Shown: positions 3,506 through 41,162, numbered from the stretch's first letter. The stretch is DNA of 64,000 nucleotides from Croceicoccus mobilis (GCF_001661965.1 NZ_LYWZ01000022.1:372001-436000), one strand, 5' to 3'. Program-made: numbers and translations. The notes: generated from the letters alone by a model not told the origin.

Positions 3506-5500
3506 ATGATTGGCAAGGCCATAGGTGCCATCCCGTTCGCGGCTGGGCTGCTTTTCGCCACCTCTGCGCTGGCGCAGGTGACGATCCACGTCTCCCCCGG
3601 CGGGAATGACGGCAATCCCGGAACCGCGGAAAAGCCACTGAAATCGCTTGTAAAGGCGCAGGAGATCGTTCGCGCAAACAATGCATCCGATGATGTGACC
3701 GTCCTTCTGGCAGATGGCGCCTACCGCCTTACGGCCCCGCTGATCTTCCGCCAGGCCGATGGTGGACAGAATGGCCATTCCGTCGAATGGCGCGCAGCCC
3801 CGGGCGCAAATCCCATGATCACATCCGGCATGAAAATTACCGGTTTTCGCCCCTATGACGAAGACCGGCATCTTTACGTCGCAGAAACGCCAAAGGGGCT
3901 TGATACGCGGCAGATCTGGATCAATGGCACTCGCGGCGAAAGTCCGTTCGTGGAGATTCCGCTGGACGACCTGCAATTCAGCGCAACCGGCTTTGAAGTC
4001 ACGGACCCCGAATATGCCTGGCTTGGCGATATTTCGCGACCAGACAGGGTGGAGGCCGAGGCCACCGGGATTTTTACCGACCGGTATTCACCCGTGGAAT
4101 CCATTGATGGTACGCGTTTCACCATGTCGCAGCCCGCTTGGGACAACAACACTTGGGGCTATGACACGGCGAGCCAGCCCCTGTTCCCAGAAGAATCACG
4201 CTTCTTCCTGCGCGGTGCCCTGGAGTTCGTCGGGAAGGTCGGCCAATGGCATTCGCGCTGGCACCAATGGGTGATCGATCCCGATGAAGGCAGGCTTTAC
4301 CTGCGCACCGGACAGGACGAGGACATTGCCGAACTGGATGTCGTGGTGCCCACGCTGGAAGTGCTGGTGTCGATCAGCGGGACGCCCGAAGCGCCTGTCG
4401 AACGCTTGACCTTCCGCGGACTGCGTTTTTCGCACAGCTCATGGCTCGGGCCTTCGCGCGACACCGGCTACGCCAACCAGCAGAGCGGGGCCTACCTCAG
4501 CGACCCCTCCCCGCTTCATCCCGACGACGCTTGGGAAACGTGCGGCTGGGGCTGTGTGGAATTTGAATCGATGCGGTTGAAGTGGCACCAGATACCCGCC
4601 GCTGTCCAGGTTTCAGCGGCACGCGACATCACTTTCGAAGGAAATACGTTCAGCCAGCTTGGCCAGGTCGCGCTTGGCATCGGCAATGAACCGCTGGCGC
4701 ACGAAACCGGTATTGGCCTCGCCACCTCCAACATTCGGGTTGCGCGCAACCGCTTTGCTGTCATTGCGGGCGGCGCGATTATGGCAGGCGGTGTACGCAC
4801 CGATGCACATCACCCGTCCGATCAGGCGCTGATCAATCGCGACCTGACGATCGAGGACAATGTCATCCAGTCGGTCAGCCACGATTACAAGGACAATGCC
4901 GCGATCCTCACCACCTATTTCGATGGGGCGACGATCGCGCACAACGACATCAGCGAAGCGCCTTATGACGCGATCGCAACCGGCTGGGGCTGGGGCTATA
5001 ACGATGAAGGCGGCAACCCCAACTATGACCAGAACCAGCAGGGCTATGTCCATAATCCGCGCTTCGACACACCGACCACGCTGCGCGACACACTGGTCGA
5101 AGGCAACCGCATCCATGGGGTGAAGCAATGGTACATGGACGGCGGCGCCATCTATAACCTTTCGGCCAATCCCAACGCAGTCATCCGCCGCAATCATATC
5201 TTCGACATCAACGGAAAGATTGCCATCTATCTCGATGAAGGCAGCAAGCACTTCACCGTAAGCGAGAATGTCGTCGAAACGGACGGCGTCTGGCTGAACG
5301 TCAACACGGCCGGAAAAATGTACGACCAAGGCATTTCCACCGATAACCGGGCGATGGGCAACTGGCACAACTCGCTGAAAACGGGTGGACGCTGGCTGCC
5401 GAGGGTGGGCAATGATGCGCGCGGCAACAATCTTGTGGCCGACGCGAACTGGCCTGAAGAGGCCCTTCAGGTGATCGCGGAGGCCGGCCCCCGCGACTGA
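3506..5500 (+). CDS. Secreted right-handed beta-helix glycosidase, GH141-like
   Basis: 664 residues with a clear Sec signal peptide (cleavage after TSALA, about residue 23), so periplasmic or secreted. The opening after cleavage (VTIHVSPGGNDGNPGTAEKPLKSL) is the typical start of the large beta-helix family containing GH141. Later repeats such as NRDLTIEDNVIQ, TIAHNDISEAPYDAI and VIRRNHIFDINGK are successive helix turns. Characterised GH141 members include an alpha-L-fucosidase acting on RG-II, which suits this locus; substrate is inferred. AGAGGAGAGG precedes the ATG. It is followed by a strong bidirectional terminator shared with the convergent GH2 gene. Confidence 0.75.
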   Translation: MIGKAIGAIPFAAGLLFATSALAQVTIHVSPGGNDGNPGTAEKPLKSLVKAQEIVRANNASDDVTVLLADGAYRLTAPLIFRQADGGQNGHSVEWRAAPGANPMITSGMKITGFRPYDEDRHLYVAETPKGLDTRQIWINGTRGESPFVEIPLDDLQFSATGFEVTDPEYAWLGDISRPDRVEAEATGIFTDRYSPVESIDGTRFTMSQPAWDNNTWGYDTASQPLFPEESRFFLRGALEFVGKVGQWHSRWHQWVIDPDEGRLYLRTGQDEDIAELDVVVPTLEVLVSISGTPEAPVERLTFRGLRFSHSSWLGPSRDTGYANQQSGAYLSDPSPLHPDDAWETCGWGCVEFESMRLKWHQIPAAVQVSAARDITFEGNTFSQLGQVALGIGNEPLAHETGIGLATSNIRVARNRFAVIAGGAIMAGGVRTDAHHPSDQALINRDLTIEDNVIQSVSHDYKDNAAILTTYFDGATIAHNDISEAPYDAIATGWGWGYNDEGGNPNYDQNQQGYVHNPRFDTPTTLRDTLVEGNRIHGVKQWYMDGGAIYNLSANPNAVIRRNHIFDINGKIAIYLDEGSKHFTVSENVVETDGVWLNVNTAGKMYDQGISTDNRAMGNWHNSLKTGGRWLPRVGNDARGNNLVADANWPEEALQVIAEAGPRD

Positions 5501-9317: not shown

Positions 9318-9339
9318 TCATATGATGTATGATGTTTAA
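9318..9339 (-). promoter_or_regulatory. Putative GntR-family operator ahead of GH28-GH2 operon
   Basis: The plus strand reads TCATATGATGTATGATG and ends TTTAA. The inverted repeat TCATA-5-TATGA occupies 9318-9332. It is nearly identical to the element at 16184 and sits 26 bases upstream of the TTG start of the GH28-like gene, a normal operator position. Confidence 0.55.
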
Positions 9340-9363: not shown

Positions 9364-10170
9364 TCAGCCTTTTATACCGCGCGCCTTGTCCAGCTTGACG
9401 ACCAGATCGGCGCTGGACGGCATGGATTTCAGGATTGAGCGGGTGATGCGTTCATAATGGCTGATGAAGCGGGCAATTTCCGCCTCGCCCATGACCGCCC
9501 CCGGGTCGCGCCCCTCCTCAGCCAAGCGGCTGGCAAGATCGCGCTCTTGCTCGACACGCCATTCGTGGACGACTTCGAAACCGGGCGCAGCCAAAAGGAT
9601 CAAGCGGTCGATACGATTGAATAACGCCTGATAAGAGCCGGACAGAAAATCGTTCACCGCTTCTCGCCAGCGTCCTTCAGTGTCTTCCTCGGCTTCCAGC
9701 TTGTTGACCGGCTCTGTCAATTCGTTTCGATCTTCGGGGGTCGCACCAACACACCAGCCTTCGAAAAGGACCATGTCGACCCCGCCCTCGACAACCGGCC
9801 AAAGCTCCCCAGGCACGGGTTCATCACTGGCCTTGTCGAAACGCGGAAGAGCAACCGTCTTGCCTGCCCGCAGGTCATCGATCACTTCCAAACCAAGCGA
9901 TACATCGTGTGTTCCGGGGACGCCGCGTGTCACGAACAATGGATGGATTGCCTGCGCAAGCCTGCATCGCTCTTGCGTACCCAGGTAAAGATCGTCCAGC
10001 GACAGGACAGCGACCTTCAGTCCTTTGCGTGAAAGGCTCTTTTCAAGCTGGCCCGCCAGTGTCGATTTCCCGCTCCCCTGCGCTCCGCAGATTCCCAGCA
10101 CAAGGGGCCGTTTGCCGGTCGACAGCCAATCGTCGATGGCCTTGGCGACAATGTCAGGCAACGCGGTCAA
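9364..10170 (-). CDS. P-loop kinase, probable D-glycerate 3-kinase
   Basis: About 268 residues. The Walker A motif GICGAQGSGKST lies near the N-terminus, followed by LSLDDLYLG, PRFDKASDEP and VLFEGWCVG, the signature order of the plant GLYK/yeast-type glycerate kinase family. The reaction would be D-glycerate to 3-phosphoglycerate in the cytoplasm. The start is uncertain: a TTG at 10170 has AGGA six bases upstream, while another TTG at 10212 would extend it by 14 residues inside the upstream gene. Both overlap the 2-hydroxyacid dehydrogenase, whose product could be D-glycerate, which supports a linked pair. It is the last gene of the minus-strand operon starting at 16162. Confidence 0.8.
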   Translation of the reverse strand: MTALPDIVAKAIDDWLSTGKRPLVLGICGAQGSGKSTLAGQLEKSLSRKGLKVAVLSLDDLYLGTQERCRLAQAIHPLFVTRGVPGTHDVSLGLEVIDDLRAGKTVALPRFDKASDEPVPGELWPVVEGGVDMVLFEGWCVGATPEDRNELTEPVNKLEAEEDTEGRWREAVNDFLSGSYQALFNRIDRLILLAAPGFEVVHEWRVEQERDLASRLAEEGRDPGAVMGEAEIARFISHYERITRSILKSMPSSADLVVKLDKARGIKG

Positions 10171-11110
10171 GCGGTTCCTGCCCAGCAAAGAAGCGATCGA
10201 GATTGTCGGCAACCTTCATGCCCATCGCTTCACGCGTTTCCAGCGTGGCAGACCCCAGGTGCGGAAGCAGCACCGCATTGGGAAGATCGACGAGGCCGGG
10301 GTTTACGTTCGGCTCGTTTTCGAAAACGTCGAGGCCCGCAGCCGCAATCTTTCTATCACGCAGCGCGTCAACCAGCGCCGCTTCGTCGATCAGCGTCCCT
10401 CTCCCGGTGTTCAACAGGACAGCGCCTGGCTTCATGCGTTTCAGCATGGCCGCATCGATCATGTGATGGGTTTCCGCCCCGCCCGGCGCGTGAAGGGAAA
10501 CGACATCCGAAGCCGCCAGAAGACCAGCCAGCTCGGCATGATAGCTGCCTTCGGGCATGTCCGGCTTCGGCGTGCGGCTGTGATAGGCGATCCTCATGCC
10601 GAATGCCCTGGCCCTGTCCGCCATGGCCCGGGCAATTCGGCCAAAGCCGACCAGCCCCAGCACCTTTCCCGACAGGGACGATCCCAGCAGATGCGTCGGT
10701 CTCCAGCCAGTCCATTCCCCGGCACGCAGTTCGCGCTCGCCTTCGCCTGCGCGGCGCGTCGCCATCAACAGCAAGGTCATTGCGATATCGGCAGTCGCAT
10801 CGGTCAACACATCGGGCGTGTTGGTAACGGTTATGCCAGCGCGTCGCGCTGCTTCCAGATCGACATGTTCGATGCCCGCGCCGAAATTTCCGATGATCCG
10901 GGCGCGCACATCCGGCCCCTCTATCGCCGATGCTTCCAGACGATCGGTGACAGTGGGGCACACCGCATCAAATTGCCGCATGGCATCGGCCAGCGCGTCC
11001 GGTCCCAGCGGCACATCCTCTTCGTTCAATGTCACGTCATAGCGTTGCGCCAGCCGCCGCTCGACAGCTTCGGGCCAGCGGCGGGACAGCAGAATACGGG
11101 GTTTGGTCAT
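10154..11110 (-). CDS. D-isomer-specific 2-hydroxyacid dehydrogenase (glyoxylate/hydroxypyruvate reductase type)
   Basis: 318 residues. The nucleotide-binding GLVGFGRIAR is at about 150. The catalytic Arg is in NTGRGTLID, the Glu in DVFENEPNV and the His in LLPHLGSAT, the complete triad of this family. GAGIEHVDLEAARR is the usual substrate-loop region. It would interconvert a 2-keto acid (hydroxypyruvate, glyoxylate or another) with the D-hydroxy acid using NAD(P)H. It is followed with overlap by the glycerate kinase, which suggests hydroxypyruvate to D-glycerate to 3-phosphoglycerate as the outlet of the pathway encoded upstream. Confidence 0.85.
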   Translation of the reverse strand: MTKPRILLSRRWPEAVERRLAQRYDVTLNEEDVPLGPDALADAMRQFDAVCPTVTDRLEASAIEGPDVRARIIGNFGAGIEHVDLEAARRAGITVTNTPDVLTDATADIAMTLLLMATRRAGEGERELRAGEWTGWRPTHLLGSSLSGKVLGLVGFGRIARAMADRARAFGMRIAYHSRTPKPDMPEGSYHAELAGLLAASDVVSLHAPGGAETHHMIDAAMLKRMKPGAVLLNTGRGTLIDEAALVDALRDRKIAAAGLDVFENEPNVNPGLVDLPNAVLLPHLGSATLETREAMGMKVADNLDRFFAGQEPLDRVA

Positions 11111-11118
11111 GATTTCTC

Positions 11119-11889
11119 CTATCGCCGTAGGAACTGCGCGTCACGCCGTTCGGCAAAGGCGGCGCGCCCTTCAGCCGCGTCCTCTGTCGCAAAGCAGATT
11201 GCCTGCAGGTCGCGCTCATACTCGATCGCCTTGTCCCACGGCATGGTATGGGCGGCACGAAGGTTCAGCTTTGCAGTCTCTGCCGCGATCGGAGCACGGC
11301 TTGCGATAGTGGCGGCGATTTCCATGGCGCGCGGCATCAATGCCGAGGGTTCATGCACCTCGCTTACGATGCCCCATTCCCTGGCAAGGCCTGCATCGAT
11401 CATATCGCCCGTCAAGACCATCATCGCCGCATTGGACGATCCCGCGCAATAGGACAGGCCTGCCGCCATGCCGCCACCGCCGATCCATCCCAGCTTGATT
11501 TCCGGTGCGGCAAAACGGGCATTGGAAGATGCAATGCGGATATCGGCGGCCATGGCCGTTTCCAGCCCGCCGCCCAGCGCATAGCCGTTGATCGCTGCGA
11601 CCACCGGCTTCCGACAGGCGCGCAGCGCATCGCAGTAATCGTCGCGATTGCGAAAGTCCCACGGCGTCGCATAGCTGTCTAGCGTCGAGATGTCCGAACC
11701 TGCGGAAAATGCCTTTTCGCCAGCACCGGTCACTACCACGCAGCGCACGGCATTACTGACATTACATTCGGCCACGGCCTCTATCAGGGCCGCTGCCATT
11801 GCAGGGGTCAGCGCATTCAACTTTTCGGCCCGGTTGAAGGTAATGGTGGCCACGTGGTCCTGCACGTCGAAAATCAGGGCATCGGTCAT
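11119..11889 (-). CDS. Enoyl-CoA hydratase/isomerase (crotonase) family protein
   Basis: 256 residues of crotonase fold. The oxyanion-hole segments are visible: KAFSAGSDIS (about 60-69) and INGYALGGGLETAMAADIRIA. The Glu in the GGGLE segment is at the position usually catalytic in hydratases; the second acidic position lies in KLGWIGGGGMA, where the common ELGL/PEATLG Glu is not evident. That leaves isomerase, lyase or hydrolase chemistry open. Its ATG overlaps the upstream gene's stop by four bases, and a CoA-transferase lies one gene further upstream, so the substrate is probably a sugar-acid-derived CoA thioester. That substrate is inference. Confidence 0.82.
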   Translation of the reverse strand: MTDALIFDVQDHVATITFNRAEKLNALTPAMAAALIEAVAECNVSNAVRCVVVTGAGEKAFSAGSDISTLDSYATPWDFRNRDDYCDALRACRKPVVAAINGYALGGGLETAMAADIRIASSNARFAAPEIKLGWIGGGGMAAGLSYCAGSSNAAMMVLTGDMIDAGLAREWGIVSEVHEPSALMPRAMEIAATIASRAPIAAETAKLNLRAAHTMPWDKAIEYERDLQAICFATEDAAEGRAAFAERRDAQFLRR

Positions 11890-13022
11890 GTTTCGGCTCC
11901 GGCCGGATGGTTCAGTTCGTAAAGCCGCTCGATCGCGTCCAGCGTGGGCTCGGCCCTCTCGCCTGCCAGCAGTGCGCTACGTAGCAGGGTGGAGGCGGAT
12001 GTCTGGAAGGCAATCGCGCCATCGTGGCGAGGGCGCAGCGTTGCCTGCTCCAATGTCTGGAGCGTGGCGGCGAAGAAATTGCCGGTTGCCTGATTGACCA
12101 CCGGATCGATCCAGGCGGACCGGAAGGCAGGCTGCCCGTCATGGCCGGGAATGAAGCCGCGCTGCACCCTGTCGGACATCAGCCAGCGAATATGGTCGAG
12201 CAAAGCGGGCGTAATCTTGCAGCGGCGCGAAACACCAATGCCGGTCCCGCCAAGGATCGATCCGATGCGCCCGTCCGGTCCGGACGGCGCATCGCCAAAC
12301 TCCACTCCGCGCGTTGCATAGTTCACATAACCATAGATGAGCGGGCACAGGTCCGGCCCGTCGCCCGATGACATGGCATCCAGAATGGCTATCGGGTTCA
12401 TGTCCGCCGTGGTCCGCGTGGCATCCCCGGTTAACGCCGTCATGATGGCGAATGCCTCTCTGCCAAACGCGCGGTCGACAAAGCCTTCCCGCAAGGGCTG
12501 TGCGTCAAACCCCAGCGCAGCGCAGATGGACTGAAAGCTGAGAATGGCATGCGGACCCGCCAGATTGAGCGCGACCTTGCACGTTTCGGCCAAGTCGGGA
12601 AGCTGCTCCCAGCTCGTCGGAATCGTGTCTACGCTTCCGCTTCGCCACGCCATGACCTGTGTTGCGGCATCCAGCGGCAGGGCCCAATGCTGTCCGGCAT
12701 AGTGATAGCTGGCAAGCGATGGCCCCGCGATCGCATCGCGCCAGCCGGCAATCTCGCCCTCGGCAAAAAGCGTTTCGACCGGCACAAGGCAGTTCGAGGC
12801 GACCGCCTCGCCCACATGGGGATGGTCCAGAACGACAAGGTCATATCGGTCGCACAATTCGGCGATCGGGTGGGATTCGAACCCTTCAAGAGGATGACGG
12901 TCCCATTCCAGCGTCAGGCCAGTCGCTCCGCCAGCCGCACGTGCCAGCGCATTATATCCGCGGGGATGATCCCAGGTCAGCCCACGATAGCCAGGCACAG
13001 TCAAGTCGGCAGGAGCTGTCAT
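11886..13022 (-). CDS. Solute-binding-protein-fold protein without signal peptide, unknown function
   Basis: 378 residues resembling family 1 extracellular solute-binding proteins: an N-terminal RGLTWDHPRGYNALARAA, a mid-region YAGQHWALPLDAATQVMAWR, then SWEQLPDLAETC. The N-terminus (MTAPADLTVPGYRG) has neither a hydrophobic signal nor a lipobox, so the protein should stay in the cytoplasm. No ABC permease or ATPase is encoded nearby. It overlaps by four bases both the CoA-transferase before it and the crotonase after it, implying equal production and perhaps a complex. It may be a cytoplasmic substrate-binding or enzymatic derivative of the fold; no function is recognised. Confidence 0.7.
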   Translation of the reverse strand: MTAPADLTVPGYRGLTWDHPRGYNALARAAGGATGLTLEWDRHPLEGFESHPIAELCDRYDLVVLDHPHVGEAVASNCLVPVETLFAEGEIAGWRDAIAGPSLASYHYAGQHWALPLDAATQVMAWRSGSVDTIPTSWEQLPDLAETCKVALNLAGPHAILSFQSICAALGFDAQPLREGFVDRAFGREAFAIMTALTGDATRTTADMNPIAILDAMSSGDGPDLCPLIYGYVNYATRGVEFGDAPSGPDGRIGSILGGTGIGVSRRCKITPALLDHIRWLMSDRVQRGFIPGHDGQPAFRSAWIDPVVNQATGNFFAATLQTLEQATLRPRHDGAIAFQTSASTLLRSALLAGERAEPTLDAIERLYELNHPAGAET

Positions 13023-14209
13023 GCGTGTTGCCGCACCACGCCGGATTCGATCAGCGCATCGATCGCGTCATCGGCCAGGCCGGCCTCCTTCATGATCTGG
13101 CGGCTGTGTTCACCCACCAACGGCGCGCCGCGTTCTACCCCGCAGGGTGTGCGCGAGAAGCGGATGGGGAAGCCGGGCACTTTCAGGCGACCCTCGGTCG
13201 GGTGATCATATTCGATGAATGTGCCGTTGTGCTTGATCTGCGGATCATTGACGAGATCCGCGTAGCCATAGACCGGCCCAGCCCAGATATCGCGCGCCCG
13301 CATTTCCGCCAGCCATTCCTCGCTACCTTTGTTCAGGAGGTGCTTCTTGACCCGTGCGAATATCTCGTCGCGCATGGTCCAGCTGTCGCGTTCGTCTTCG
13401 AGTCCTGCGAAGAAATCGTCTTCGAACAGTTCTCCCAGCTTGCCAAGCGATGCCATGGCCACGGTGATATAGCCGTCTGCGGTCGCGAACACGCCGTATG
13501 GCGCGCGAATATAGGAATGGGCATGCGGCTCGGCCGAGCGGGCCTGCGGCTTGCCGCCCACGGTGAACACCGAAAGCTCCTGCATCTGGATCGTGGCGAT
13601 CGCGTCCAGCATGTTGACCTGCACCAGTTGCCCTTCGCCAGTGCGCTCGCGGTGGAACAGCGCGGCCAGCGCGCCTTCGAAGGCGGAATAGGCAGCAATT
13701 GCATCGACGAGGTACTGCCCGGCAGCAGAGGGAGGTGCCCCCTCCGACCCGGTGGACATCATCGCGCCCGACATGCCCTGCAGCAGCAGGTCCTGTCCGG
13801 GAAAATCGCGATAGGGTCCGTCTTCGCCGTAGCCCGACATCGAAATATAGATGAGGCGCGGATTGATGGCGGAAAGCGTTTCGTAATCGACTCCCAGCCG
13901 CTCGGCGACACCGGGCCGATAGTTCTGCAGGAACACGTCGGCTTCACGCACCATGTCGATCAGCAGCGCCTTGCCTTCAGGTGATTTCAGATCAACGGCG
14001 AGCGAGCGCTTGTTCCGGTTGAGCGAGAGAAACGAGACATTTATCTTGTTGCCTGTCGCGCCGCCGGCAGAGGCGTGGCGCTGCCATTCGCCGCTGGGCG
14101 GCTCCACCTTGATCACATCGGCGCCCATGTCGCCCATGCGCTGCGCCGCGAACGGCCCGGCCATTGCAATAGAGCAATCGAGGACGCGTATACCTTCGAG
14201 GATTTTCAT
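13019..14209 (-). CDS. CaiB/BaiF (class III) CoA-transferase
   Basis: 396 residues, the usual length. The opening GIRVLDCSIAMAGPFAAQRMGDMGADVIKVE and NRNKRSLAVDLKSPEG are the family N-terminal signatures. The catalytic Asp is expected in FPGQDLLLQGMSG (about residue 168). It would move CoA between an acyl-CoA donor and a carboxylic acid. It is coupled by ATGA overlap to the solute-binding-fold gene and follows an SDR by about 19 bases. A CoA-transferase in a sugar operon is unusual; the acceptor is probably an acid made from a pectin sugar, but which one cannot be read from the sequence. Confidence 0.88.
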   Translation of the reverse strand: MKILEGIRVLDCSIAMAGPFAAQRMGDMGADVIKVEPPSGEWQRHASAGGATGNKINVSFLSLNRNKRSLAVDLKSPEGKALLIDMVREADVFLQNYRPGVAERLGVDYETLSAINPRLIYISMSGYGEDGPYRDFPGQDLLLQGMSGAMMSTGSEGAPPSAAGQYLVDAIAAYSAFEGALAALFHRERTGEGQLVQVNMLDAIATIQMQELSVFTVGGKPQARSAEPHAHSYIRAPYGVFATADGYITVAMASLGKLGELFEDDFFAGLEDERDSWTMRDEIFARVKKHLLNKGSEEWLAEMRARDIWAGPVYGYADLVNDPQIKHNGTFIEYDHPTEGRLKVPGFPIRFSRTPCGVERGAPLVGEHSRQIMKEAGLADDAIDALIESGVVRQHA

Positions 14210-14228
14210 CGGTCTGCTTTCCAGTAAA

Positions 14229-14975
14229 TCAGTTCATGGTCCATCCGCCGTTCACGTGCAGCGTCTGGCCGGTGATGAAACCGGCTTCGTCGCTGGTGAA
14301 AAAGGCGATGGTATTGGCAATGTCCCCCGCGTGCCCGCGGCGCTTGATCGCCTGCGCGTCCAGCACCATGCGTTCATAGCCTTCGGGGTCGGGATGGATT
14401 TTTTCGGCATCGGTCGGGAATGCGCCCGGCGCGATGGCATTGACGGTCACGCCGGCAGGACCGAATTCGCGCGCCCACGCCCGGGTCAGCCCGATCAGGG
14501 TCATCTTGGATGCAACATAGGGCGAAAGGTTCTCCCAACCGCCCGAAACCGTGATGCTTGAGATATTGACGATCCGGCCAAAGCCGCGCGACTTCATGCC
14601 CGGCAGGCCGATCTGGACGGCCAGAACACCCGCATCGACATTGACGCGCTGGACGGCCTGATATTCCTCGAGCGTGAAGTCCTCGAACGGTTTCGACGGG
14701 TAGATCCCGGCATTGTTGATCACGATGTCAAAGCCGCCGGTTTCGGCCAGAAGCCGCTCCAGCACGGCGCGATAGGCGGCAAGGTCGCCCAGGTCGGCAT
14801 CGGAGACGACGAGCCGACCCGGTCCGCGCCCCAGTGCGGCCTGCTCCAGCGCTGCCAGCTTGTCGCGGTTGTAATCGATGGCGATGACGGTTGCCCCGCG
14901 ATCGATCATCAGCAGAGTCGTTTCGAACCCCAGCCCGCCTGCGGCACCTGTGTAGAGAACGGTCCGCCCCTTCAT
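14229..14975 (-). CDS. Short-chain dehydrogenase/reductase
   Basis: 248 residues. The nucleotide motif TGAAGGLG is at about 9-16, followed by NNAGIY, Ser in ISSITVSGG, YVASK for the catalytic Tyr/Lys, and the C-terminal FFTSDEAGFITGQTLHVNGGW. This is the generic 3-oxoacyl reductase/sugar dehydrogenase layout, and the substrate cannot be assigned. The start at 14975 is chosen because it overlaps the DUF4432 gene's stop by four bases; an upstream extension to 15053 would lie inside that gene. It probably oxidises the sugar or sugar acid that is later passed to the CoA-transferase. Confidence 0.85.
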   Translation of the reverse strand: MKGRTVLYTGAAGGLGFETTLLMIDRGATVIAIDYNRDKLAALEQAALGRGPGRLVVSDADLGDLAAYRAVLERLLAETGGFDIVINNAGIYPSKPFEDFTLEEYQAVQRVNVDAGVLAVQIGLPGMKSRGFGRIVNISSITVSGGWENLSPYVASKMTLIGLTRAWAREFGPAGVTVNAIAPGAFPTDAEKIHPDPEGYERMVLDAQAIKRRGHAGDIANTIAFFTSDEAGFITGQTLHVNGGWTMN

Positions 14976-16162
14976 GCCACATGCTCCGCACCAGAAGTGA
15001 TCTGCGGATAATGGCCCGAAGGTTTCGGGTAGTCTTCGTCCGGCTGGTGGCACACGCCCTCGATCCGGCGAACGGCGTCCTGCACGGTGCCATCGTCAGG
15101 CAGAATGCGAAAGATACTGTCGTAGCGCCGCTCGTCACCATGTTCGAGCCAGATCAGCTCGCCGCGCTCGCGCGCGAAATCCTTGCCCAGCACGTGATTG
15201 GTGGAAGGCTCTATCCCCATGGCATAATGACCGGCGTGCAGGTTTTGCCATTCATACATGGCCGGAAACTGGCTTTTCAGCGTCTCCACCTCGAAGCCGA
15301 AGCCCAGTGCTTCGTTCACGATGGCAACATTGACGCGCCCATCGGCACTGGCGGCCATGTCATGCTGCCAGACCTGTTCGTGGAAATTGGGGATGGGTGC
15401 CGGAAGGGTGCGATAGCCAGTGCCCTGCCCCTGATAGTCACCCTCATGCGCTGCCCAGATCACATCACGCACCGGCGCGACATAGCGCGACCCTTCGGCG
15501 ACGACCGGGTGGCTCACATTGATGTGATAGCAATACATGTGCGGCGTGCGATAGAAACCGTGATTGACCACGCGGTCATGCAGCCTGATCTCGTTCCCGC
15601 CGACATCGGCCTCGATGCGACGGATCAGGTGAAGATCCTCTCCGAACACGGTGGATTGCTGCACCACGCCCTCGGCCCACAGAACGCATTCGTCACCGCG
15701 CCATTCCTCACCATAGCCTGTCAAACGGGCCGGGATTGTCCCGATCCTGCCGTGCAGCGAGGACGATACCTTCTCCCGCGGACCATAATGGTAATGGTCG
15801 GCCTGATCGTCGTGCATGAACAGAACGTGGTCGAGGCCGCAGGTTATCAGCAGCCCCGACATCGAACGGAACCAGCCAAGGCCGCCCTCGCCTTCGTATT
15901 CGTGGAGAGCGGGATGGCGAAAACCCGAAGGCGAATGCCAGCCGACCGCGCGTCCATTATGTTCGCATTCGGCGATATCCATTGCGCGATCGACCAGCAC
16001 GGTGAAACGAAGGCCGCTTCCTGTGCGGAATTCGAGCTGGCGGTTGCCCCGCTCTACCCCGTCTCCCAATGTTGAAAGGCGCACCCCCGCAAACTGCGAC
16101 AGCGCCCCCGACCGACTGGCCAGTTCGCGTCGGCTTATCGCTTCGCCGAAAAGCTGTGGCAC
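14972..16162 (-). CDS. DUF4432/aldose-1-epimerase-like protein
   Basis: 396 residues from a GTG at 16162. This start is preferred over the ATG at 16183 because AGGAGAGG lies just before it, whereas the ATG has no ribosome site and abuts the operator. Galactose-mutarotase-like features include RFTVLVDRAMDIAEC, GLLITCGLDHV, HGRIGTIPA, VVNHGFYRTPHMYCYHINVSHP and YEWQNLHAGHYAMGIEPSTN. Family members are beta-sandwich carbohydrate-active proteins of the DUF4432 group with no fixed reaction; mutarotation or epimerisation is inferred. It is the first gene of the operon 16162-9364. Confidence 0.72.
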   Translation of the reverse strand: MPQLFGEAISRRELASRSGALSQFAGVRLSTLGDGVERGNRQLEFRTGSGLRFTVLVDRAMDIAECEHNGRAVGWHSPSGFRHPALHEYEGEGGLGWFRSMSGLLITCGLDHVLFMHDDQADHYHYGPREKVSSSLHGRIGTIPARLTGYGEEWRGDECVLWAEGVVQQSTVFGEDLHLIRRIEADVGGNEIRLHDRVVNHGFYRTPHMYCYHINVSHPVVAEGSRYVAPVRDVIWAAHEGDYQGQGTGYRTLPAPIPNFHEQVWQHDMAASADGRVNVAIVNEALGFGFEVETLKSQFPAMYEWQNLHAGHYAMGIEPSTNHVLGKDFARERGELIWLEHGDERRYDSIFRILPDDGTVQDAVRRIEGVCHQPDEDYPKPSGHYPQITSGAEHVA

Positions 16163-16183
16163 AATCCTCTCCTGCTTTTTCAT

Positions 16184-16205
16184 TCATAAGATGTATGATG
16201 TTTAA
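16184..16205 (-). promoter_or_regulatory. Putative GntR-family operator ahead of CoA-transferase operon
   Basis: The plus strand reads TCATAAGATGTATGATG and ends TTTAA. The TCATA-5-TATGA inverted repeat occupies 16184-16198. It differs from the 9318 element by one base over 22. It lies between the start of the DUF4432 gene (minus) and the mutarotase gene (plus). Confidence 0.55.
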
Positions 16206-16288: not shown

Positions 16289-16645
16289 ATGGCTATCGAA
16301 CGACGTTGTTTCGCAGTCGATCTCAACGACGATGCTGAAATGATCGCAGCCTATCGCCGCTGGCACGAACCGGGCGGACCACCAGCCGCCGTCACGGCTG
16401 CGATTCGCGCCGACGGCGTCGTGTCACTACAGATATGGCAGGTCGCGGACCGAATGTTCATGATCATGGAGCAGGACAGCGAGCGCGCGCCCGATCCCGA
16501 AGCCAAGAAGGCCCGCGACGCCGACAACCCCGAAGTGGCGGAGTGGGACCGGATGATGGCCGGCTTCCAGAAGTCGCTGCCATCCGTACCCGATCAGACC
16601 TGGGTCGAGATGGAGCGCATCTATGACCTGGCCGATCAGCCCTGA
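16289..16645 (+). CDS. L-rhamnose/L-fucose mutarotase family protein (DUF718)
   Basis: 118 residues, dimeric alpha-beta barrel family. It has RRCFAVDLNDD at the start, the conserved His in AYRRWHEPGG (about residue 31), and a Trp-rich end (PDQTWVEMERIYDL). Such enzymes interconvert alpha and beta anomers of L-rhamnose or L-fucose so that the right anomer feeds the 1-dehydrogenase. GGAG lies seven bases before the ATG. Its last ten bases overlap convergently with the GntR gene. Which deoxy-sugar it serves is unclear; RhaM-like enzymes are usually shorter. Confidence 0.78.
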   Translation: MAIERRCFAVDLNDDAEMIAAYRRWHEPGGPPAAVTAAIRADGVVSLQIWQVADRMFMIMEQDSERAPDPEAKKARDADNPEVAEWDRMMAGFQKSLPSVPDQTWVEMERIYDLADQP

Positions 16646-17382
16646 ATTTTCCGAACCGAATCGGTCCGCCGCTTCGTCCACGAACCCGAGATATGTTCGC
16701 GCATCGCCGCGCCTGCGGCATCGGGGTCGCGCGCCATGATGGCATCGAAAACCTTGCGATGCGCGGCTTGCGTGGATTTGACGTGGTCGACGCTGAGCTT
16801 GCCGGAATAGGCATGCGTGCGAAGCGCCTCTGACTGAATGCCATCGATGATGGCCTTGCTCAGTCGGTCACCAGACATGCGCATGATGATATCGTGGAAG
16901 CGCAGATCCTCGTGCACATAGGCGGATGGAATGGTGACCAGTTCCTCCAGCTTCTCGATCTGGCTGGCCAGTTCCGCGCGCTGTTCATCAGTGCCCTCTC
17001 GCGCCGCATTGGCCGCCATTTCCGATTCGAGCAGAACGCGGACCTGCGAAAGATTGTCGAGATAACGTAAGCCGTCCTCACCCTTGAACAGGGCAGAGAG
17101 GATCACGGGGTCAAGCATGTTCCAGGCCTGGTTTTCCCGGACGATCGTGCCGCGCCCCTGCTGAGTCACGACAAGCCCTTTCTCGATCAGGGCAGTCGTC
17201 GCTTCACGCACGACCGTGCGGCTTACCTCGTACATCTCGCAAAGCATGTTCTCGGGCGGCAAGGCCGTGCCGACGGGATAGGTACCAGCCACGATCAAAT
17301 TCACAAGGTCTTCGACCACAGCGGTCGAAAGCCGTGGCCGACGTCTTGCTCGCGCAGGAGTTGCGGCAGTTTCCTTGCTCAT
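16636..17382 (-). CDS. FadR-subfamily GntR transcriptional regulator
   Basis: 248 residues. An N-terminal winged helix (GTALPPENMLCEMYEVSRTVVREATTALIEKG split around residues 38-70) is followed by an all-helical FCD ligand domain. Metal-binding candidates are the Asp/His in LRFHDIIM and the His residues in TQAAHRKVF and AMREHISGS. Such proteins are usually repressors released by a sugar acid. It is divergent from the enolase-superfamily gene, with a TCATA...TATG repeat between them. Similar repeats precede at least four other units in the left half of the locus, which makes it the likely local regulator. Confidence 0.9.
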   Translation of the reverse strand: MSKETAATPARARRRPRLSTAVVEDLVNLIVAGTYPVGTALPPENMLCEMYEVSRTVVREATTALIEKGLVVTQQGRGTIVRENQAWNMLDPVILSALFKGEDGLRYLDNLSQVRVLLESEMAANAAREGTDEQRAELASQIEKLEELVTIPSAYVHEDLRFHDIIMRMSGDRLSKAIIDGIQSEALRTHAYSGKLSVDHVKSTQAAHRKVFDAIMARDPDAAGAAMREHISGSWTKRRTDSVRKIQG

Positions 17383-17470
17383 ATTCTTGCCCCCTGATGG
17401 GAAATAAATGTGTCCCTTTCCGCTTGGCTTTCGCGCAAATTCACGTCAAGGGCTTGCGTACCGCGAAAGA

Positions 17471-17487
17471 TCATACATACTATGTTT
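17471..17487 (+). promoter_or_regulatory. Putative GntR operator between regulator and enolase-superfamily gene
   Basis: TCATACATACTATGTTT: half-sites TCATA and TATGt are separated by five bases. It lies in the 149-base divergent region 17383-17531, where it could control both the regulator itself and the dehydratase-like gene. Confidence 0.45.
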
Positions 17488-17531
17488 CCAAACAGAGGGG
17501 TCGGTCAGGCCTGCTACGGGGTGCGAAAGGC

Positions 17532-18680
17532 ATGAGAGTCACGGGTTATCGTTCGCTGGTCACGACTCATGATTGGGGTCGTCCGGTTGGCGATGTAAAC
17601 GGAATTATACAGGACGGTATTACCGAGGTTCCCGTCCTTCTTCTGGAAACGGACGTCGGACTGACAGGCGTCGGCGTTGGCCAGCACGCCGATATTGCGC
17701 GTATCTTCCGGGCCGTCGAAGGCAAGGATCCGCGCGCCGTTACGACCATCTACGACTCGATGTTGTCGCAGGTGTTCAAGAGCGGACACGCCGGCGCGAC
17801 GTTCGGCGCGATTGCCGCAGTCGATATGGCGCTGTGGGACCTGAAGGCGAAAATGGCGGACGAACCGCTTTGGCGCACCTTGGGTGCCATGGACTGTTTC
17901 GTGTCCGGCTATGCGTCTGGGCTATGCCACGGACTGTCGGACGATCAATTCGCGGCGCATTACGAAATCTGGTCCGAACGCGGTTTCTCGTCCGTCAAGG
18001 TTAAAGGCGGTGCCGATCTGGGCCGCGACATCGACCGCCTGAAAACGGTTCGCGGCATCATGTCGAAGAACACTTCCCGTCCAGGCCTCATGCTTGACGT
18101 GAATGAATCCTGGAACGCCAAGCAGGCGATCCGTCATCTTCACGAAATTGAACAGCAACTGGATCTGACATGGATTGAAGAGCCCGTACGGCGATGGGAT
18201 GCTGCCGGGTTGGCCAGCGTATCGAAAGCCTGTCGCGCGGCAGTGGCATCGGGTGAGAACCTGACCGGGCTAGAGCAATATTCACCGCTGTTCGAAGCAG
18301 GCGCACTGGATGTCGTTCAGGCAGGCAGCGTCTGGGGCATCACCCACTTCCTGCGCGTAGCGATTGCCGCCCATTCGCGCAATCTGCCCGTATCGCCTGT
18401 AGCTTACGATGCGAATCCTCTCGCCCATGCGGCAGCAGCCGTCCCCAATCTGATCGGCATCGAAGTTCAGGACTGGAAATGGCCTGCAGGGCTGTCGGTC
18501 GATCAATCGATCGAAGACGGCGGTATCAGGCTGGGCAATAGCCCGGGCCTTGGCATCGAAGTGAACGAGGATGCGCTGATCCCCAGATCCAGCGAAGGCT
18601 GGGCCGCCAGCAGCGGCCCCCACTGCAGGCCAAGACATGCCGGTCTTCAACTAGCGCCGGCAACCGCTAAACGAAAATAA
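17532..18680 (+). CDS. Enolase-superfamily (mandelate racemase subgroup-like) protein, probable sugar-acid dehydratase
   Basis: 382 residues from the ATG at 17532; a longer frame overlaps the regulator. It has the capping domain, then barrel motifs: KxK in SSVKVKGG (about 160), and metal ligands Asp in LMLDVNES, Glu in TWIEEPV and Glu in VASGENL. The His-Asp pair usual in the mandelate racemase subgroup seems absent: the sixth strand reads VVQAGSVWG instead of a QPD motif, and the seventh reads VSPVAYD where PH is expected. It may dehydrate a sugar acid using the Lys only. The last 30 residues (from SSEGWAAS) do not look like the family's C-terminus. An MFS porter gene follows. Confidence 0.8.
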   Translation: MRVTGYRSLVTTHDWGRPVGDVNGIIQDGITEVPVLLLETDVGLTGVGVGQHADIARIFRAVEGKDPRAVTTIYDSMLSQVFKSGHAGATFGAIAAVDMALWDLKAKMADEPLWRTLGAMDCFVSGYASGLCHGLSDDQFAAHYEIWSERGFSSVKVKGGADLGRDIDRLKTVRGIMSKNTSRPGLMLDVNESWNAKQAIRHLHEIEQQLDLTWIEEPVRRWDAAGLASVSKACRAAVASGENLTGLEQYSPLFEAGALDVVQAGSVWGITHFLRVAIAAHSRNLPVSPVAYDANPLAHAAAAVPNLIGIEVQDWKWPAGLSVDQSIEDGGIRLGNSPGLGIEVNEDALIPRSSEGWAASSGPHCRPRHAGLQLAPATAKRK

Positions 18681-18715: not shown

Positions 18716-19975
18716 ATGGCAACCGCGACGGCACCGGCTGACAATTACCTGTTGGGCCCGCAGCGAATGAAGCTGCAGCTTTCGCTGATGGTGAACTTCT
18801 TCCTGCTGATGGCGCTCTACAGCGGCGTCCTTGGCGTCCTGCTGCCAAACCAGATCGCGGAACTGGACGAGGGATCAAAAGCGAACAATCTGGCGCTGCT
18901 GTTCGCTGTAACCTCGATCTTCTCGACCCTGGCCACTCCGATTGCGGGCGCCTTGTCCGATCGTACGCGCAGCCGCTGGGGCAAACGCTCGCCATGGATT
19001 GCCATTGGATCGCTTTTCGGATCGCTGGCGCTCTTCGGCGTTTCGTGGATGACGAGCTTCTGGTCGTTGATGGTGCTGTGGGTGATGGCCGCAATCGCGT
19101 ACAACTCAATGCAACCTGCCATGACAACGCTTATTGCCGATCGCTTCGCTCCTGAAGCCCGGGGCGGTGTCTCAGGCATGGTCGGCGCGGGAATGACCGG
19201 AGGCCTGACGGCAGGCACGGTCGTGGCCGGATATCTGGCGGGTGAGCGGGTGCTGGCCTATGGCCTGTTCGCTAGCGCGATATTGGTGTCCTGCCTTGCC
19301 TTCGTCGCCATCAACCGAGAGCCTGCCAGCGAAGCCATACCCCGCCGTCCGATTATTTGGGGCGAATTTTTCAAGGGCTTCTGGATCTCTCCCAAGAAGC
19401 ATCCCGATTTCGCCTGGGCCTTTGCCAGTCGCTTCCTGATCTACATGGGATATCAGGCCGTTGCCGCATATCTCCTTTATATCCTGCGCGACTACATTGG
19501 GCTGGAAAACGAAGCGTCGAATATCGCCATCGCCAATCTGGCGATGGTCACGCTTGTCTGTCTTGTCACGTCTTCGCTGATATCCGGATGGCTGTCCGAC
19601 AGGTTCCAGCGGCGGAAACCCTTCGTGATCCTGGGCAGCCTGATCATGGGCTGCGCCATGGTTGCACCGCTGATATCGCCCGACATGGACGGTATGTGGA
19701 CCTATGCCGCGATAATCGGCGTGGGATACGGAATGTTCATGTCCATCGACATGGCACTGATGACGCAGGTCCTGCCGAAAAGCGCACTGGGCGATGAAGG
19801 CAAGGATCTGGGCATCCTGACGACCGCCGTGAACATTCCCCAGATCCTGAGCCCCATCATGGCCGCTATCCTGCTGAATCTATTCGCTGACGACTACAGC
19901 GTGATTTTCTGGGCCGCAGTGGTGTTTGTCTTCGCATCAGCCTTTTGCGTGATGCCGATCCGGTCGGTGCGATAA
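18716..19975 (+). CDS. MFS transporter
   Basis: 419 residues, about 12 transmembrane helices in two halves. The loop between helices 2 and 3 carries the MFS signature SDRTRSRWGKRSP, and the second half carries SDRFQRRKP. This inner-membrane proton- or cation-coupled porter resembles sugar/glycoside porters; the substrate is inferred to be a saccharide or sugar acid from the neighbours. GGGAGAGATA precedes the ATG, 35 bases after the enolase-superfamily gene, so the two are probably cotranscribed. Confidence 0.88.
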   Translation: MATATAPADNYLLGPQRMKLQLSLMVNFFLLMALYSGVLGVLLPNQIAELDEGSKANNLALLFAVTSIFSTLATPIAGALSDRTRSRWGKRSPWIAIGSLFGSLALFGVSWMTSFWSLMVLWVMAAIAYNSMQPAMTTLIADRFAPEARGGVSGMVGAGMTGGLTAGTVVAGYLAGERVLAYGLFASAILVSCLAFVAINREPASEAIPRRPIIWGEFFKGFWISPKKHPDFAWAFASRFLIYMGYQAVAAYLLYILRDYIGLENEASNIAIANLAMVTLVCLVTSSLISGWLSDRFQRRKPFVILGSLIMGCAMVAPLISPDMDGMWTYAAIIGVGYGMFMSIDMALMTQVLPKSALGDEGKDLGILTTAVNIPQILSPIMAAILLNLFADDYSVIFWAAVVFVFASAFCVMPIRSVR

Positions 19976-19985
19976 AAATTATTCG

Positions 19986-19997
19986 TCATACGTATGA
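19986..19997. promoter_or_regulatory. Palindromic putative GntR operator ahead of TonB-dependent receptor
   Basis: TCATACGTATGA is a perfect 12-base palindrome, with the same half-sites as the other elements but two bases apart. It is 72 bases upstream of the receptor's ATG in an AT-rich intergenic region that would hold its promoter. Confidence 0.5.
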
Positions 19998-20069
19998 TGT
20001 CATTTGACACCGGTGTAATTTCGACGCATTAAGATCGAAATCAATAATAAAACTTGGAGAGGGAGTTAC

Positions 20070-26993: not shown

Positions 26994-27021
26994 GACTCTC
27001 CTCAATTACTATTCGTTTTTT

Positions 27022-28622: not shown

Positions 28623-28642
28623 CGTAAATCCTCGTTTCGATT

Positions 28643-34157: not shown

Positions 34158-34225
34158 TCTGCAATCCTCGTCCCGATTGTTTTCTTGTCGGTCTGATGGC
34201 GGCCCTTGCGAGAGCCGTTGCCTGG

Positions 34226-35014: not shown

Positions 35015-35249
35015 CGCTTGCACGCGATAAAACCGGACGGAGGAATCGGTCGAAAAGTCATCTCTGGCAAGGCCTTCATCAACATCAAACGCAGCCTGCC
35101 GCCGGAAAACGGCGGCGCTCATGAAATTCGTATGATGACTGGAAATTGATGTCAATTTCTTACGACTTCTGACCTGATCGAAAATTTTCGAAAGCAAATG
35201 CTTGCGACTGGTTTGCATTGTCGCTATCCAGCGGTCAGGAGAGCGATTC
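35015..35249. promoter_or_regulatory. Divergent control region between DeoR gene and transketolase operon
   Basis: 235 bases without a convincing gene, AT-richer than the flanks (for example 35120-35200). It contains TTCGTATGATG at 35127-35137, which resembles one half of the GntR-type elements of the left half, and TCATGATATG at 35248-35257 over the start codon. No clear DeoR operator repeat was identified by eye. Confidence 0.4.
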
Positions 35250-38599: not shown

Positions 38600-38666
38600 A
38601 CTTTTGCACGAAAAAAGACGCTGGACAGCATCGAGCCGGCGCGTCGCAAGGGATTGGAAAAGAACA

Positions 38667-41133: not shown

Positions 41134-41162
41134 CCGGCAACCATTCAAACGGAAAGACAATC

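What the first reader, a model, noticed from the sequence alone, without database searches (positions are those of the whole stretch)
9364..16162. Candidate undescribed CoA-thioester route for a pectin sugar acid
Seen: a tightly overlapping operon of DUF4432 epimerase-like protein, SDR, CaiB/BaiF CoA-transferase, solute-binding-fold protein, crotonase, 2-hydroxyacid dehydrogenase and glycerate kinase, preceded by the same operator as the pectinase genes. Known sugar-acid routes (Entner-Doudoroff-like, Weimberg, diketo-hydrolase) do not use CoA-transferase plus crotonase. Inference: a sugar-derived acid is oxidised, activated to a CoA ester and then split or dehydrated by the crotonase, with a C3 product leaving through hydroxypyruvate and D-glycerate to 3-phosphoglycerate. 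Unusual RG-II acids such as aceric acid, for which I know no catabolic pathway, would be attractive substrates.
Basis: inference. Interest (0 to 1): 0.85.

Follow-up and report, generated by a model that had tools for sequence, protein, structure and literature searches.

The report
CoA-dependent sugar-acid gene module
A set of neighbouring genes in a plant-cell-wall-eating bacterium looks like an undescribed way of breaking down a sugar acid by first attaching it to coenzyme A; the same gene trio recurs in distant soil bacteria, so it is real, but which sugar it eats is still unknown.

Summary
The operon is real: seven tightly packed minus-strand genes (DUF4432, SDR, CaiB-type CoA-transferase, a sugar-binding-protein fold without signal peptide, crotonase, D-2-hydroxyacid dehydrogenase, D-glycerate-3-kinase-like protein), with an operator-like site shared with GH28, GntR/enolase and TonB genes. 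In the 80 best of at least 522 relatives, CaiB lies within 3 kb of the binding-fold gene in 76 and crotonase in 77, across Alphaproteobacteria, Burkholderiales, Actinomycetota and Verrucomicrobiota. A divergent group has MaoC instead of crotonase in 7 of 12 loci; 3 of those 12 have neither CaiB nor hydratase but an enolase-family neighbour. I infer a CoA-ester elimination/hydration step inside a non-phosphorylative sugar-acid pathway, often beside a FAH protein related to 2-keto-3-deoxypentonate dehydratases. Exit through glycerate is not general (27-29 of 80 loci), and aceric acid is a weak guess: many carriers have sugar ABC importers and no linked pectin enzymes. A CoA-linked sugar-acid route was proposed before (deoxyribonate, Klebsiella). 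My literature searches found no description of this trio. Substrate, reactions and their order are unproven.

The parts
14972..16183 (-). DUF4432 aldose-epimerase-like protein (sugar mutarotase/isomerase candidate)
   Evidence: PF14486 E 1.5e-95; only solved relative at E 0.01 is 3ty1 'hypothetical aldose 1-epimerase', E 7.1e-32; homologue in 60 of 80 binding-fold loci
14229..14975 (-). Classical SDR dehydrogenase (ATG at about 14975; longest ORF starts at 15053)
   Evidence: PF13561/PF00106; N138, S166, Y179, K183 (numbering from 15053) kept in at least 97% of 39 sequences (catalytic roles recalled); homologue in 68 of 80 loci
13019..14209 (-). CaiB/BaiF family III CoA-transferase
   Evidence: PF02515 E 8.7e-107; D169 kept in at least 97% of 57 sequences (that it is the catalytic Asp is recalled from formyl-CoA transferase)
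11886..13022 (-). Solute-binding-protein fold without room for a usual signal peptide, role unknown
   Evidence: AlphaFold model pLDDT 93.3, first strand at residue 11; best chains are sugar-binding proteins, 5iai Z 34.8, rmsd 3.4, 360 aligned; 62 columns invariant in 41 sequences; start codons
11119..11889 (-). Crotonase / enoyl-CoA hydratase
   Evidence: PF00378 E 2.6e-55; E110 and E130 kept in at least 97% of 44 sequences (equivalence to rat crotonase Glu144/Glu164 is recalled)
10154..11110 (-). D-2-hydroxyacid dehydrogenase (glyoxylate/hydroxypyruvate-reductase-like)
   Evidence: PF02826 E 3.3e-58; best NCBIfam NF009714 glyoxylate reductase 296.5 bits, cut-off 455, not reached
9364..10212 (-). 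D-glycerate 3-kinase-like P-loop kinase
   Evidence: 7xpc GLYK E 2.5e-21, 6ckg E 2.1e-17
16185..16201 (.). Operator-like site directly upstream of DUF4432
   Evidence: 0 mismatches to the pattern; at the same place in 9 of 12 related loci
9319..9335 (.). Operator-like site upstream of GH28-like gene 7661-9292
   Evidence: 0 mismatches; gene: PF00295 27.2 bits, cut-off 22.9
17468..17484 (.). Operator-like site between GntR and enolase genes
   Evidence: 1 mismatch
19984..20000 (.). Operator-like site upstream of TonB receptor gene 20070-22817
   Evidence: 1 mismatch to the palindromic pattern at 19984-19999; gene: PF00593 E 1.2e-39
16636..17382 (-). FadR-type GntR regulator, candidate owner of the operator
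   Evidence: PF07729 and PF00392; binding not tested
17514..18680 (+). Enolase-superfamily protein, conserved with the trio in some Sphingomonadales and Actinomycetota
   Evidence: PF13378 E 5.2e-42; homologue at 50% identity or more in 11 of 80 loci; K162-x-K164 kept in 8 sequences, PVAY at 295
18716..19975 (+). MFS transporter
   Evidence: PF07690; homologue in 25 of 80 loci
16289..16645 (+). L-rhamnose-mutarotase family protein (rhaM)
   Evidence: PF05336 E 4.7e-20; homologue in 24 of 80 loci
39994..41133 (+). FAH-family protein, 2-keto-3-deoxypentonate dehydratase candidate; only copy found in the genome
   Evidence: [quoted passage not shown] single hit in G000; homologue in 42 of 80 loci
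41067..42737 (+). Aldehyde dehydrogenase (2-oxoglutarate-semialdehyde dehydrogenase candidate)
   Evidence: PF00171 E 7.3e-47; homologue at 40% or more in 8 of 80 loci; no NCBIfam cut-off reached
3506..5500 (+). GH141-like beta-helix glycosidase; homologues lie beside the operon in other genomes
   Evidence: 5mqp BT_1002 E 1.9e-34; homologue in 27 of 80 loci

Best explanation
A CoA-thioester module built into a non-phosphorylative monosaccharide pathway. A sugar is set in the right ring form by the mutarotase-like proteins (DUF4432, rhaM) and oxidised by the SDR (perhaps by Gfo-type dehydrogenases in rhizobia) to an aldonic or keto-aldonic acid. The CaiB-type transferase puts CoA on that acid, and the crotonase (MaoC in a divergent group) removes the beta-substituent by elimination, giving a 2-hydroxy-enoyl-CoA that becomes a 2-keto-3-deoxyacyl-CoA. 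The transferase then passes the CoA to the next acid, as CaiB and CaiD do with carnitine (recalled). The FAH protein and an aldehyde dehydrogenase take the 2-keto-3-deoxy acid to 2-oxoglutarate semialdehyde and 2-oxoglutarate. In Sphingomonadales, Caulobacterales and some Azospirillaceae a glycerate branch (2-hydroxyacid dehydrogenase, D-glycerate 3-kinase, in 9 loci also an FMN 2-hydroxyacid dehydrogenase) disposes of a C3 product. The binding-fold protein either holds the sugar acid for the transferase/hydratase or is itself catalytic. Shown: gene content, conservation, retained catalytic residues, fold, co-regulation signal. Inferred: every reaction, their order, the substrate.
For: Trio: among the 80 best loci of at least 522 found with the binding-fold profile, CaiB lies within 200 bp of the binding-fold gene in 73 and within 3 kb in 76; crotonase within 3 kb in 77. 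Of the seven loci without CaiB within 200 bp, L077, L082 and L086 have it within 3 kb; the genomes of the other four were searched: three have a 63-75% CaiB elsewhere, the fourth (L072) only pieces of one (76, 76, 64%). Residues kept in at least 97% of aligned sequences: CaiB D169 (57), crotonase E110/E130 (44), SDR tetrad (39). Distance correlations in the 58 loci with five core genes: binding fold/crotonase 0.90, binding fold/CaiB 0.82 (no species-tree control). Of 12 divergent loci examined, 7 carry MaoC together with CaiB and binding fold (L006, L007, L008, L009, L093, L106, L108), so a hydratase at CoA level is shared by two unrelated folds. Azospirillum L046 has SDR, CaiB, binding fold, crotonase, FAH, aldehyde dehydrogenase and an importer binding protein together; Pseudoclavibacter L086 has enolase, Gfo, AP_endonuc_2, SDR, DUF4432, CaiB, binding fold, crotonase, FAH in a row. 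A related FAH protein (COG3970) is a D-2-keto-3-deoxypentonate dehydratase (PMC6336799 section 9). The window genome has the FAH gene once, and its only two IlvD/EDD proteins are IlvD and Edd.
Against: The enolase-superfamily protein conserved with the trio in 11 of 80 loci could itself be the aldonate dehydratase, making a CoA-level dehydratase redundant. L093, L106 and L108 also hold an MR/MLE enzyme, and L106 a diketo-hydrolase-like FAH gene, so there the CoA step must do something else. In 3 of 12 divergent loci (L107, L109, L110; L107 is cut by the contig end) the binding-fold gene has no CaiB, crotonase or MaoC from my query set in the fetched stretch but an MR/MLE neighbour; L092 and L096 have CaiB without a MaoC hit. 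So the binding-fold protein is not tied to CoA enzymes everywhere. The FAH gene is not found within about 10 kb in 38 of 80 loci and this type of aldehyde dehydrogenase in 72 of 80. The glycerate branch does not follow from this chemistry. Elimination from a sugar acid does not normally need CoA.
Confidence: 0.36

Rival explanations
1. One reading: the CoA ester is split by the crotonase (retro-aldol or retro-Claisen), and a C3 piece leaves through hydroxypyruvate and D-glycerate to 3-phosphoglycerate.
For: Dehydrogenase and D-glycerate 3-kinase are in the operon here; relatives are near 27 and 29 of 80 loci. An FMN 2-hydroxyacid dehydrogenase gene follows the kinase within 120 bp in 9 of the 13 loci that have both; together these could turn L-glycerate into D-glycerate and 3-phosphoglycerate. 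Glyceryl-CoA and glycerate kinase occur in the proposed deoxyribonate routes (PMC6365646 passages).
Against: No such genes within about 10 kb in the remaining 51-53 of 80 loci, including every sampled Hyphomicrobiales, Rhodobacter/Acetobacter-type, Beta/Gamma, Actinomycetota and Verrucomicrobiota locus (homologues below threshold or elsewhere in those genomes were not sought). MaoC stands with CaiB in 7 of 12 divergent loci; I know MaoC proteins as hydratases.
Confidence: 0.2
2. The module removes an O-methyl group: 2-O-methyl-D-xylose (crotonase group, ending in the 2-keto-3-deoxypentonate dehydratase) and 2-O-methyl-L-fucose (MaoC group). Elimination of the 3-hydroxyl from the CoA ester gives a 2-methoxyenoyl-CoA whose hydration at C2 frees methanol.
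For: GH141 homologues lie within 170 bp of the crotonase or kinase gene in 15 of the 27 loci that have one, and the founding GH141 enzyme BT1002 frees 2-O-methyl-D-xylosyl-L-fucose from RG-II (PMC10154630 passages). The FAH type fits a pentonate skeleton.
Against: Wrong regiochemistry for a normal crotonase, which adds water at C3 (recalled). GH141 homologues are near no Hyphomicrobiales, Rhodobacter/Acetobacter-type, Actinomycetota or Verrucomicrobiota locus. No demethylation evidence.
Confidence: 0.1
3. The module handles an RG-II sugar acid proper, such as aceric acid.
For: The window holds an Apiosidase-family gene (PF13204) and a GH141-like gene, so RG-II is a plausible diet.
Against: No GH28-like, GH2-like or GH141-like homologue near any Hyphomicrobiales or Actinomycetota locus, while importer-type genes are common in Hyphomicrobiales (annotated examples). 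An Apiosidase-type homologue is within about 10 kb of 0 of 80 loci.
Confidence: 0.04
4. The binding-fold protein serves the sugar acid itself (sensor, carrier or enzyme) independently of CoA, and CaiB plus crotonase serve a short acid side product rather than the sugar skeleton.
For: The fold is that of sugar-binding proteins. In L107, L109 and L110 it stands with an MR/MLE enolase and without CoA enzymes from my query set.
Against: In the 80 best loci it sits beside CaiB in 73 and its distances follow crotonase best (0.90). 62 columns are invariant in 41 sequences, 49 in 47 including six divergent rows.
Confidence: 0.18

Closest known systems
CoA-bound deoxyribonate route of Klebsiella michiganensis (PMC6365646; passages read)
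   Same: Sugar-derived acid carried as CoA thioester, CoA-transferase and glycerate kinase in the gene cluster
   Different: Uses a CoA-synthetase, a hydroxyacyl-CoA dehydrogenase and a thiolase; no crotonase or binding-fold protein appears in the passages read
Carnitine CaiB/CaiD system (recalled)
   Same: Family III CoA-transferase paired with a crotonase that dehydrates or hydrates a CoA ester, CoA recycled between product and substrate
   Different: Not sugars; no binding-fold partner known to me; the L-carnitine CoA-transferase model NF002914 scores the window CaiB 142.9 bits, cut-off 413
Weimberg / non-phosphorylative pentose routes (PMC6336799: section 9 and passages; PMC9795676: passages)
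   Same: FAH-type 2-keto-3-deoxypentonate dehydratase; aldehyde dehydrogenase end and sugar dehydrogenase start (recalled)
   Different: The aldonate is dehydrated as free acid by IlvD/EDD or enolase-type enzymes (recalled); the term CoA has 0 occurrences in PMC6336799
Diketo-hydrolase route for L-rhamnose (also in this window, 26-29.9 kb)
   Same: Enolase-type dehydratase, SDR and FAH proteins
   Different: No CoA-transferase or crotonase among the genes scanned there
3,3'-thiodipropionate catabolism in Variovorax (PMC6370202; abstract and passages read)
   Same: Enoyl-CoA hydratases proposed to act on a CoA-activated acid with a beta-heteroatom
   Different: Sulfur compound; pathway not settled by the authors; no binding-fold protein in the passages read

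Membership tests
Family III (CaiB/BaiF) CoA-transferases | CoA_transf_3 domain over full length | tested here: met
   PF02515 residues 4-369, 357.8 bits, cut-off 23.3
Family III (CaiB/BaiF) CoA-transferases | Catalytic aspartate | tested here: met
   D169 kept in at least 97% of 57 sequences; its catalytic identity is recalled
Family III (CaiB/BaiF) CoA-transferases | CoA transfer activity and acid specificity | not testable with these tools
   None of the seven NCBIfam models matched reaches its cut-off
Crotonase hydratases | ECH domain and two catalytic glutamates | tested here: met
   PF00378 E 2.6e-55; E110 and E130 kept in at least 97% of 44; equivalence recalled
ABC-importer solute-binding proteins | Sugar-binding-protein fold | tested here: met
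   5iai Z 34.8, rmsd 3.4, 360 aligned
ABC-importer solute-binding proteins | Export signal before the mature domain | tested here: not met
   Window: first strand at residue 11, start overlaps the CaiB stop. Relatives: motif found in 69 of 80 loci; nearest start codon 2-22 residues before it in all 69; in 56 no start lies more than 25 residues before, in 13 one does
Weimberg pathway | 2-keto-3-deoxypentonate dehydratase and semialdehyde dehydrogenase genes | tested here: inconclusive
   FAH candidate in the window and near 42 of 80 loci, aldehyde dehydrogenase near 8 of 80; functions not shown
Weimberg pathway | IlvD/EDD-type pentonate dehydratase | tested here: not met
   Only IlvD and Edd in G000; an enolase-type dehydratase is not excluded
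Carnitine CaiB/CaiD system | Match to carnitine-specific CoA-transferase family | tested here: not met
   NF002914 142.9 bits, cut-off 413
RG-II utilisation locus | RG-II-type glycosidase relatives nearby | tested here: met
   Apiosidase family PF13204 E 4.7e-103 at 29863-31266; BT_1002-like gene at 3506-5500; activities not shown
RG-II utilisation locus | Trio restricted to polymer-degrading loci | tested here: not met
   No GH28-, GH2- or GH141-like homologue near any of 29 Hyphomicrobiales or 6 Actinomycetota loci

The most novel reading that the evidence does not exclude
A sugar-binding-protein fold has become a cytoplasmic subunit or enzyme of a CoA-thioester machine that opens sugar acids ordinary dehydratases cannot, with O-methylated sugars (2-O-methyl-D-xylose for the crotonase group, 2-O-methyl-L-fucose for the MaoC group) as the substrates that explain why CoA is needed.
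Probability: 0.08. Interest if true: 0.87.

Novelty: new variant of a known kind. Interest (0 to 1): 0.63.

Why it matters
Sugar-acid catabolism is usually described as free-acid or phosphorylated chemistry. A trio kept together across Alphaproteobacteria, Burkholderiales, Actinomycetota and Verrucomicrobiota, with a second hydratase fold in a divergent group, points to a general CoA-based step that annotation hides: annotated records call the binding-fold protein an extracellular or ABC-transporter substrate-binding protein. Finding the substrate would assign function in many plant-associated bacteria and could close a gap in the use of pectin-derived sugars. A non-transport role for a sugar-binding-protein fold inside the cell would itself be unusual.

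Tried and rejected
Galacturonate as the default substrate: the genome has a UxaC-family gene and an altronate/galactarate-dehydratase-family gene next to each other on contig C16, so a standard route probably exists; galacturonate is not excluded as a substrate of a second route.

Substrate from linked proteins: the nearest solved relatives of one rhizobial importer binding protein are generic sugar-binding proteins. The Gfo model matches many Gfo/Idh/MocA enzymes within about one Z unit (5uhw 38.8, 2glx 38.6, levoglucosan dehydrogenase 6a3g 38.3), so it says nothing specific; the best hit in the window genome is a partial match at 29%. One AP_endonuc_2 partner has no solved relative at E 1e-6.

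Family III transferases as such: four in G000, so domain presence alone is no evidence.

Co-occurrence in drawn genomes: the binding-fold protein has full-length matches in 6 of 289 class genomes, window included (10 at E 0.001, four of them partial); CaiB at E 1e-100 is in 1 of 289, the window's own. The order sample gave 5 of 196. This shows rarity and gives little power. The five other class genomes were looked at as L106-L110: two with CaiB and MaoC, three without.

Literature: searches for DUF4432; CoA-transferase with sugar-acid terms; aceric acid with CoA; FAH dehydratases; 9KKT; apiose; apionate; RG-II with GH141; aldonate/crotonase; 2-O-methyl sugars. In the listings and passages I saw, no paper on this trio; the library holds open-licence papers only, and supplements could not be read.

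Apiose as the trio's substrate: the window has a separate candidate apiose set (AP_endonuc_2, split transketolase, FGGY kinase); that this is the apulose-4-phosphate route is recalled, not tested.

Limits: presence counts are, distances; searches use different thresholds and differ slightly (crotonase 77 or 79 of 80). The 80 loci are the best-scoring ones, so the picture leans to close relatives. Taxon groups were assigned by me from record titles. Importer and regulator labels without a call (clusters) were given by looking at the sequence; mechanical ORFs there include spurious ones.

Full report
Observation. Seven minus-strand genes from 16183 down to 9364 encode DUF4432, SDR, CaiB-type CoA-transferase, a solute-binding-fold protein, crotonase, D-2-hydroxyacid dehydrogenase and a kinase whose solved relatives include two D-glycerate 3-kinases. 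Three junctions overlap by four bases.

Distribution. CaiB lies within 200 bp of the binding-fold gene in 73 of 80 and crotonase within 3 kb in 77 of 80. Homologues within about 10 kb: DUF4432 60, SDR 68, FAH 42, dehydrogenase 27, kinase 29, Gfo 26, AP_endonuc_2 26, GH141-like 27, GH28-like 21, rhaM 24, enolase at 50% or more 11. Groups by record title: Sphingomonadales 20, Caulobacterales 5, Azospirillaceae 11, Hyphomicrobiales 29, Rhodobacter/Acetobacter-type 3, Beta/Gamma 5, Actinomycetota 6, Verrucomicrobiota 1. Of seven loci without CaiB within 200 bp, three have it within 3 kb; for the other four the genomes were searched: three have a 63-75% CaiB elsewhere, the fourth (L072) only pieces of one.

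Two settings. Sphingomonadales, Caulobacterales and part of Azospirillaceae join the core to GH141-like, rhaM, MFS, in the first two also GH28- and GH2-like genes, and to the glycerate branch; GH141 is within 170 bp of crotonase or kinase in 15 of 27 loci that have it, and an FMN dehydrogenase follows the kinase within 120 bp in 9 of 13 that have both. Hyphomicrobiales, Burkholderiales and others often have Gfo, AP_endonuc_2, LacI-type and sugar-importer genes (annotated examples L090, L091, L094, L095; Pfam support). Pseudoclavibacter L086 has enolase, Gfo, AP_endonuc_2, SDR, DUF4432, CaiB, binding fold, crotonase and FAH in a row.

Divergent relatives. Twelve loci with binding-fold relatives at 34-41% identity were examined. 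Seven (L006-L009, L093, L106, L108) have CaiB and MaoC, among Gfo and, in most, SDR genes and, in L093, L106 and L108, MR/MLE and rhamnose-mutarotase genes; L092 and L096 (Sinorhizobium pSymB) have CaiB without a MaoC hit. Three (L107, cut by a contig end, L109, L110) have neither CaiB nor crotonase nor MaoC from my query set, but an MR/MLE neighbour. The pairing of CaiB with either crotonase or MaoC is the strongest argument that the shared chemistry is at an enoyl-CoA/hydroxyacyl-CoA pair. The last three loci show that the binding-fold protein can serve without it, perhaps with an enolase-type enzyme on the sugar acid; they weaken the claim that it is a fixed part of the CoA machine.

The binding-fold protein. 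The model (pLDDT 93.3) is a sugar-binding-protein fold. In the window the first strand starts at residue 11. In 69 of 80 loci where the N-terminal motif was found, a start codon lies 2-22 residues before it; in 56 no start lies more than 25 residues before, in 13 one does, so there the start is not settled. 62 columns are invariant in 41 sequences and 49 in 47 including six divergent rows, with H19, R21, D66, H67, H69, D118, H158, R330 and R332 in both sets. This suggests a precise binding or catalytic site; which is unknown.

Chemistry. Residues that I recall as catalytic in CaiB, crotonase and SDR are kept. [quoted passage not shown] a COG3970 protein from Herbaspirillum (strain name recalled) prefers D-2-keto-3-deoxypentonate (PMC6336799 section 9). 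That the window protein has this function is inference. The genome has one such FAH gene and no IlvD/EDD-type pentonate dehydratase. This fits a pathway where the CoA trio, or the enolase-type protein, makes the 2-keto-3-deoxy acid. The enolase protein keeps K-x-K but has PVAY where I recall a histidine in dehydratases of this group; not tested further.

Against. FAH and aldehyde dehydrogenase genes are far from universal near the trio, the enolase could do the dehydration, L093, L106 and L108 have their own MR/MLE enzyme, three divergent loci lack the CoA enzymes, and the glycerate branch needs another explanation.

RG-II context. The window has an Apiosidase-family gene (29863-31266), a BT_1002-like GH141 gene (3506-5500), two GH28-like genes, a GH2 gene, an alpha-L-rhamnosidase (22963-26079), and an L-rhamnose route (L-rhamnonate dehydratase model 740.1 bits, cut-off 393; hydrolase model 468.2 bits, just below its cut-off of 500). 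BT1002 frees 2-O-methyl-D-xylosyl-L-fucose from RG-II (PMC10154630 passages). So RG-II is a plausible diet here, but not a property of the trio.

Precedent. A CoA-bound route for deoxyribonate was proposed in Klebsiella on genetic evidence (PMC6365646 passages). The kind, CoA-thioester sugar-acid catabolism, is therefore known as a proposal; the variant with crotonase or MaoC and a binding-fold protein was not found in my searches.

Noticed in passing
window 26076-33163: L-rhamnose diketo-hydrolase set: amidohydrolase, SDRs, 2,4-diketo-3-deoxy-rhamnonate-hydrolase-like FAH, L-rhamnonate dehydratase, FMN L-lactate dehydrogenase.
   Followed up: partly
window 33177-39962: AP_endonuc_2 isomerase, DeoR regulator, split transketolase, FGGY kinase and MFS near an Apiosidase-family gene (29863-31266); looks like the recalled apulose-4-phosphate transketolase route for apiose.
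   Followed up: partly
window 17514-18680: Enolase-superfamily protein with K-x-K kept but PVAY where I recall a histidine in dehydratases of this group.
   Followed up: partly
L093, L106, L108: CaiB, binding-fold protein and MaoC with MR/MLE and rhamnose-mutarotase genes; a second, perhaps 6-deoxysugar, version of the module.
   Followed up: partly
L107, L109, L110: Binding-fold relatives beside an MR/MLE enolase and transporter-type genes, with no CaiB or hydratase from my query set; a third, CoA-free setting of this cytoplasmic-looking fold.
   Followed up: partly
L019, L022-L027, L029, L032: FMN 2-hydroxyacid dehydrogenase gene directly after the glycerate kinase; with the 2-hydroxyacid dehydrogenase this could turn L-glycerate into 3-phosphoglycerate.
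   Followed up: partly
L072 and its genome: CaiB relative present only as separate pieces (76, 76 and 64% identity) while binding fold and crotonase are together; described only.
   Followed up: no
window 35249-35265: Weak copy of the operator-like site between the DeoR and transketolase genes.
   Followed up: no
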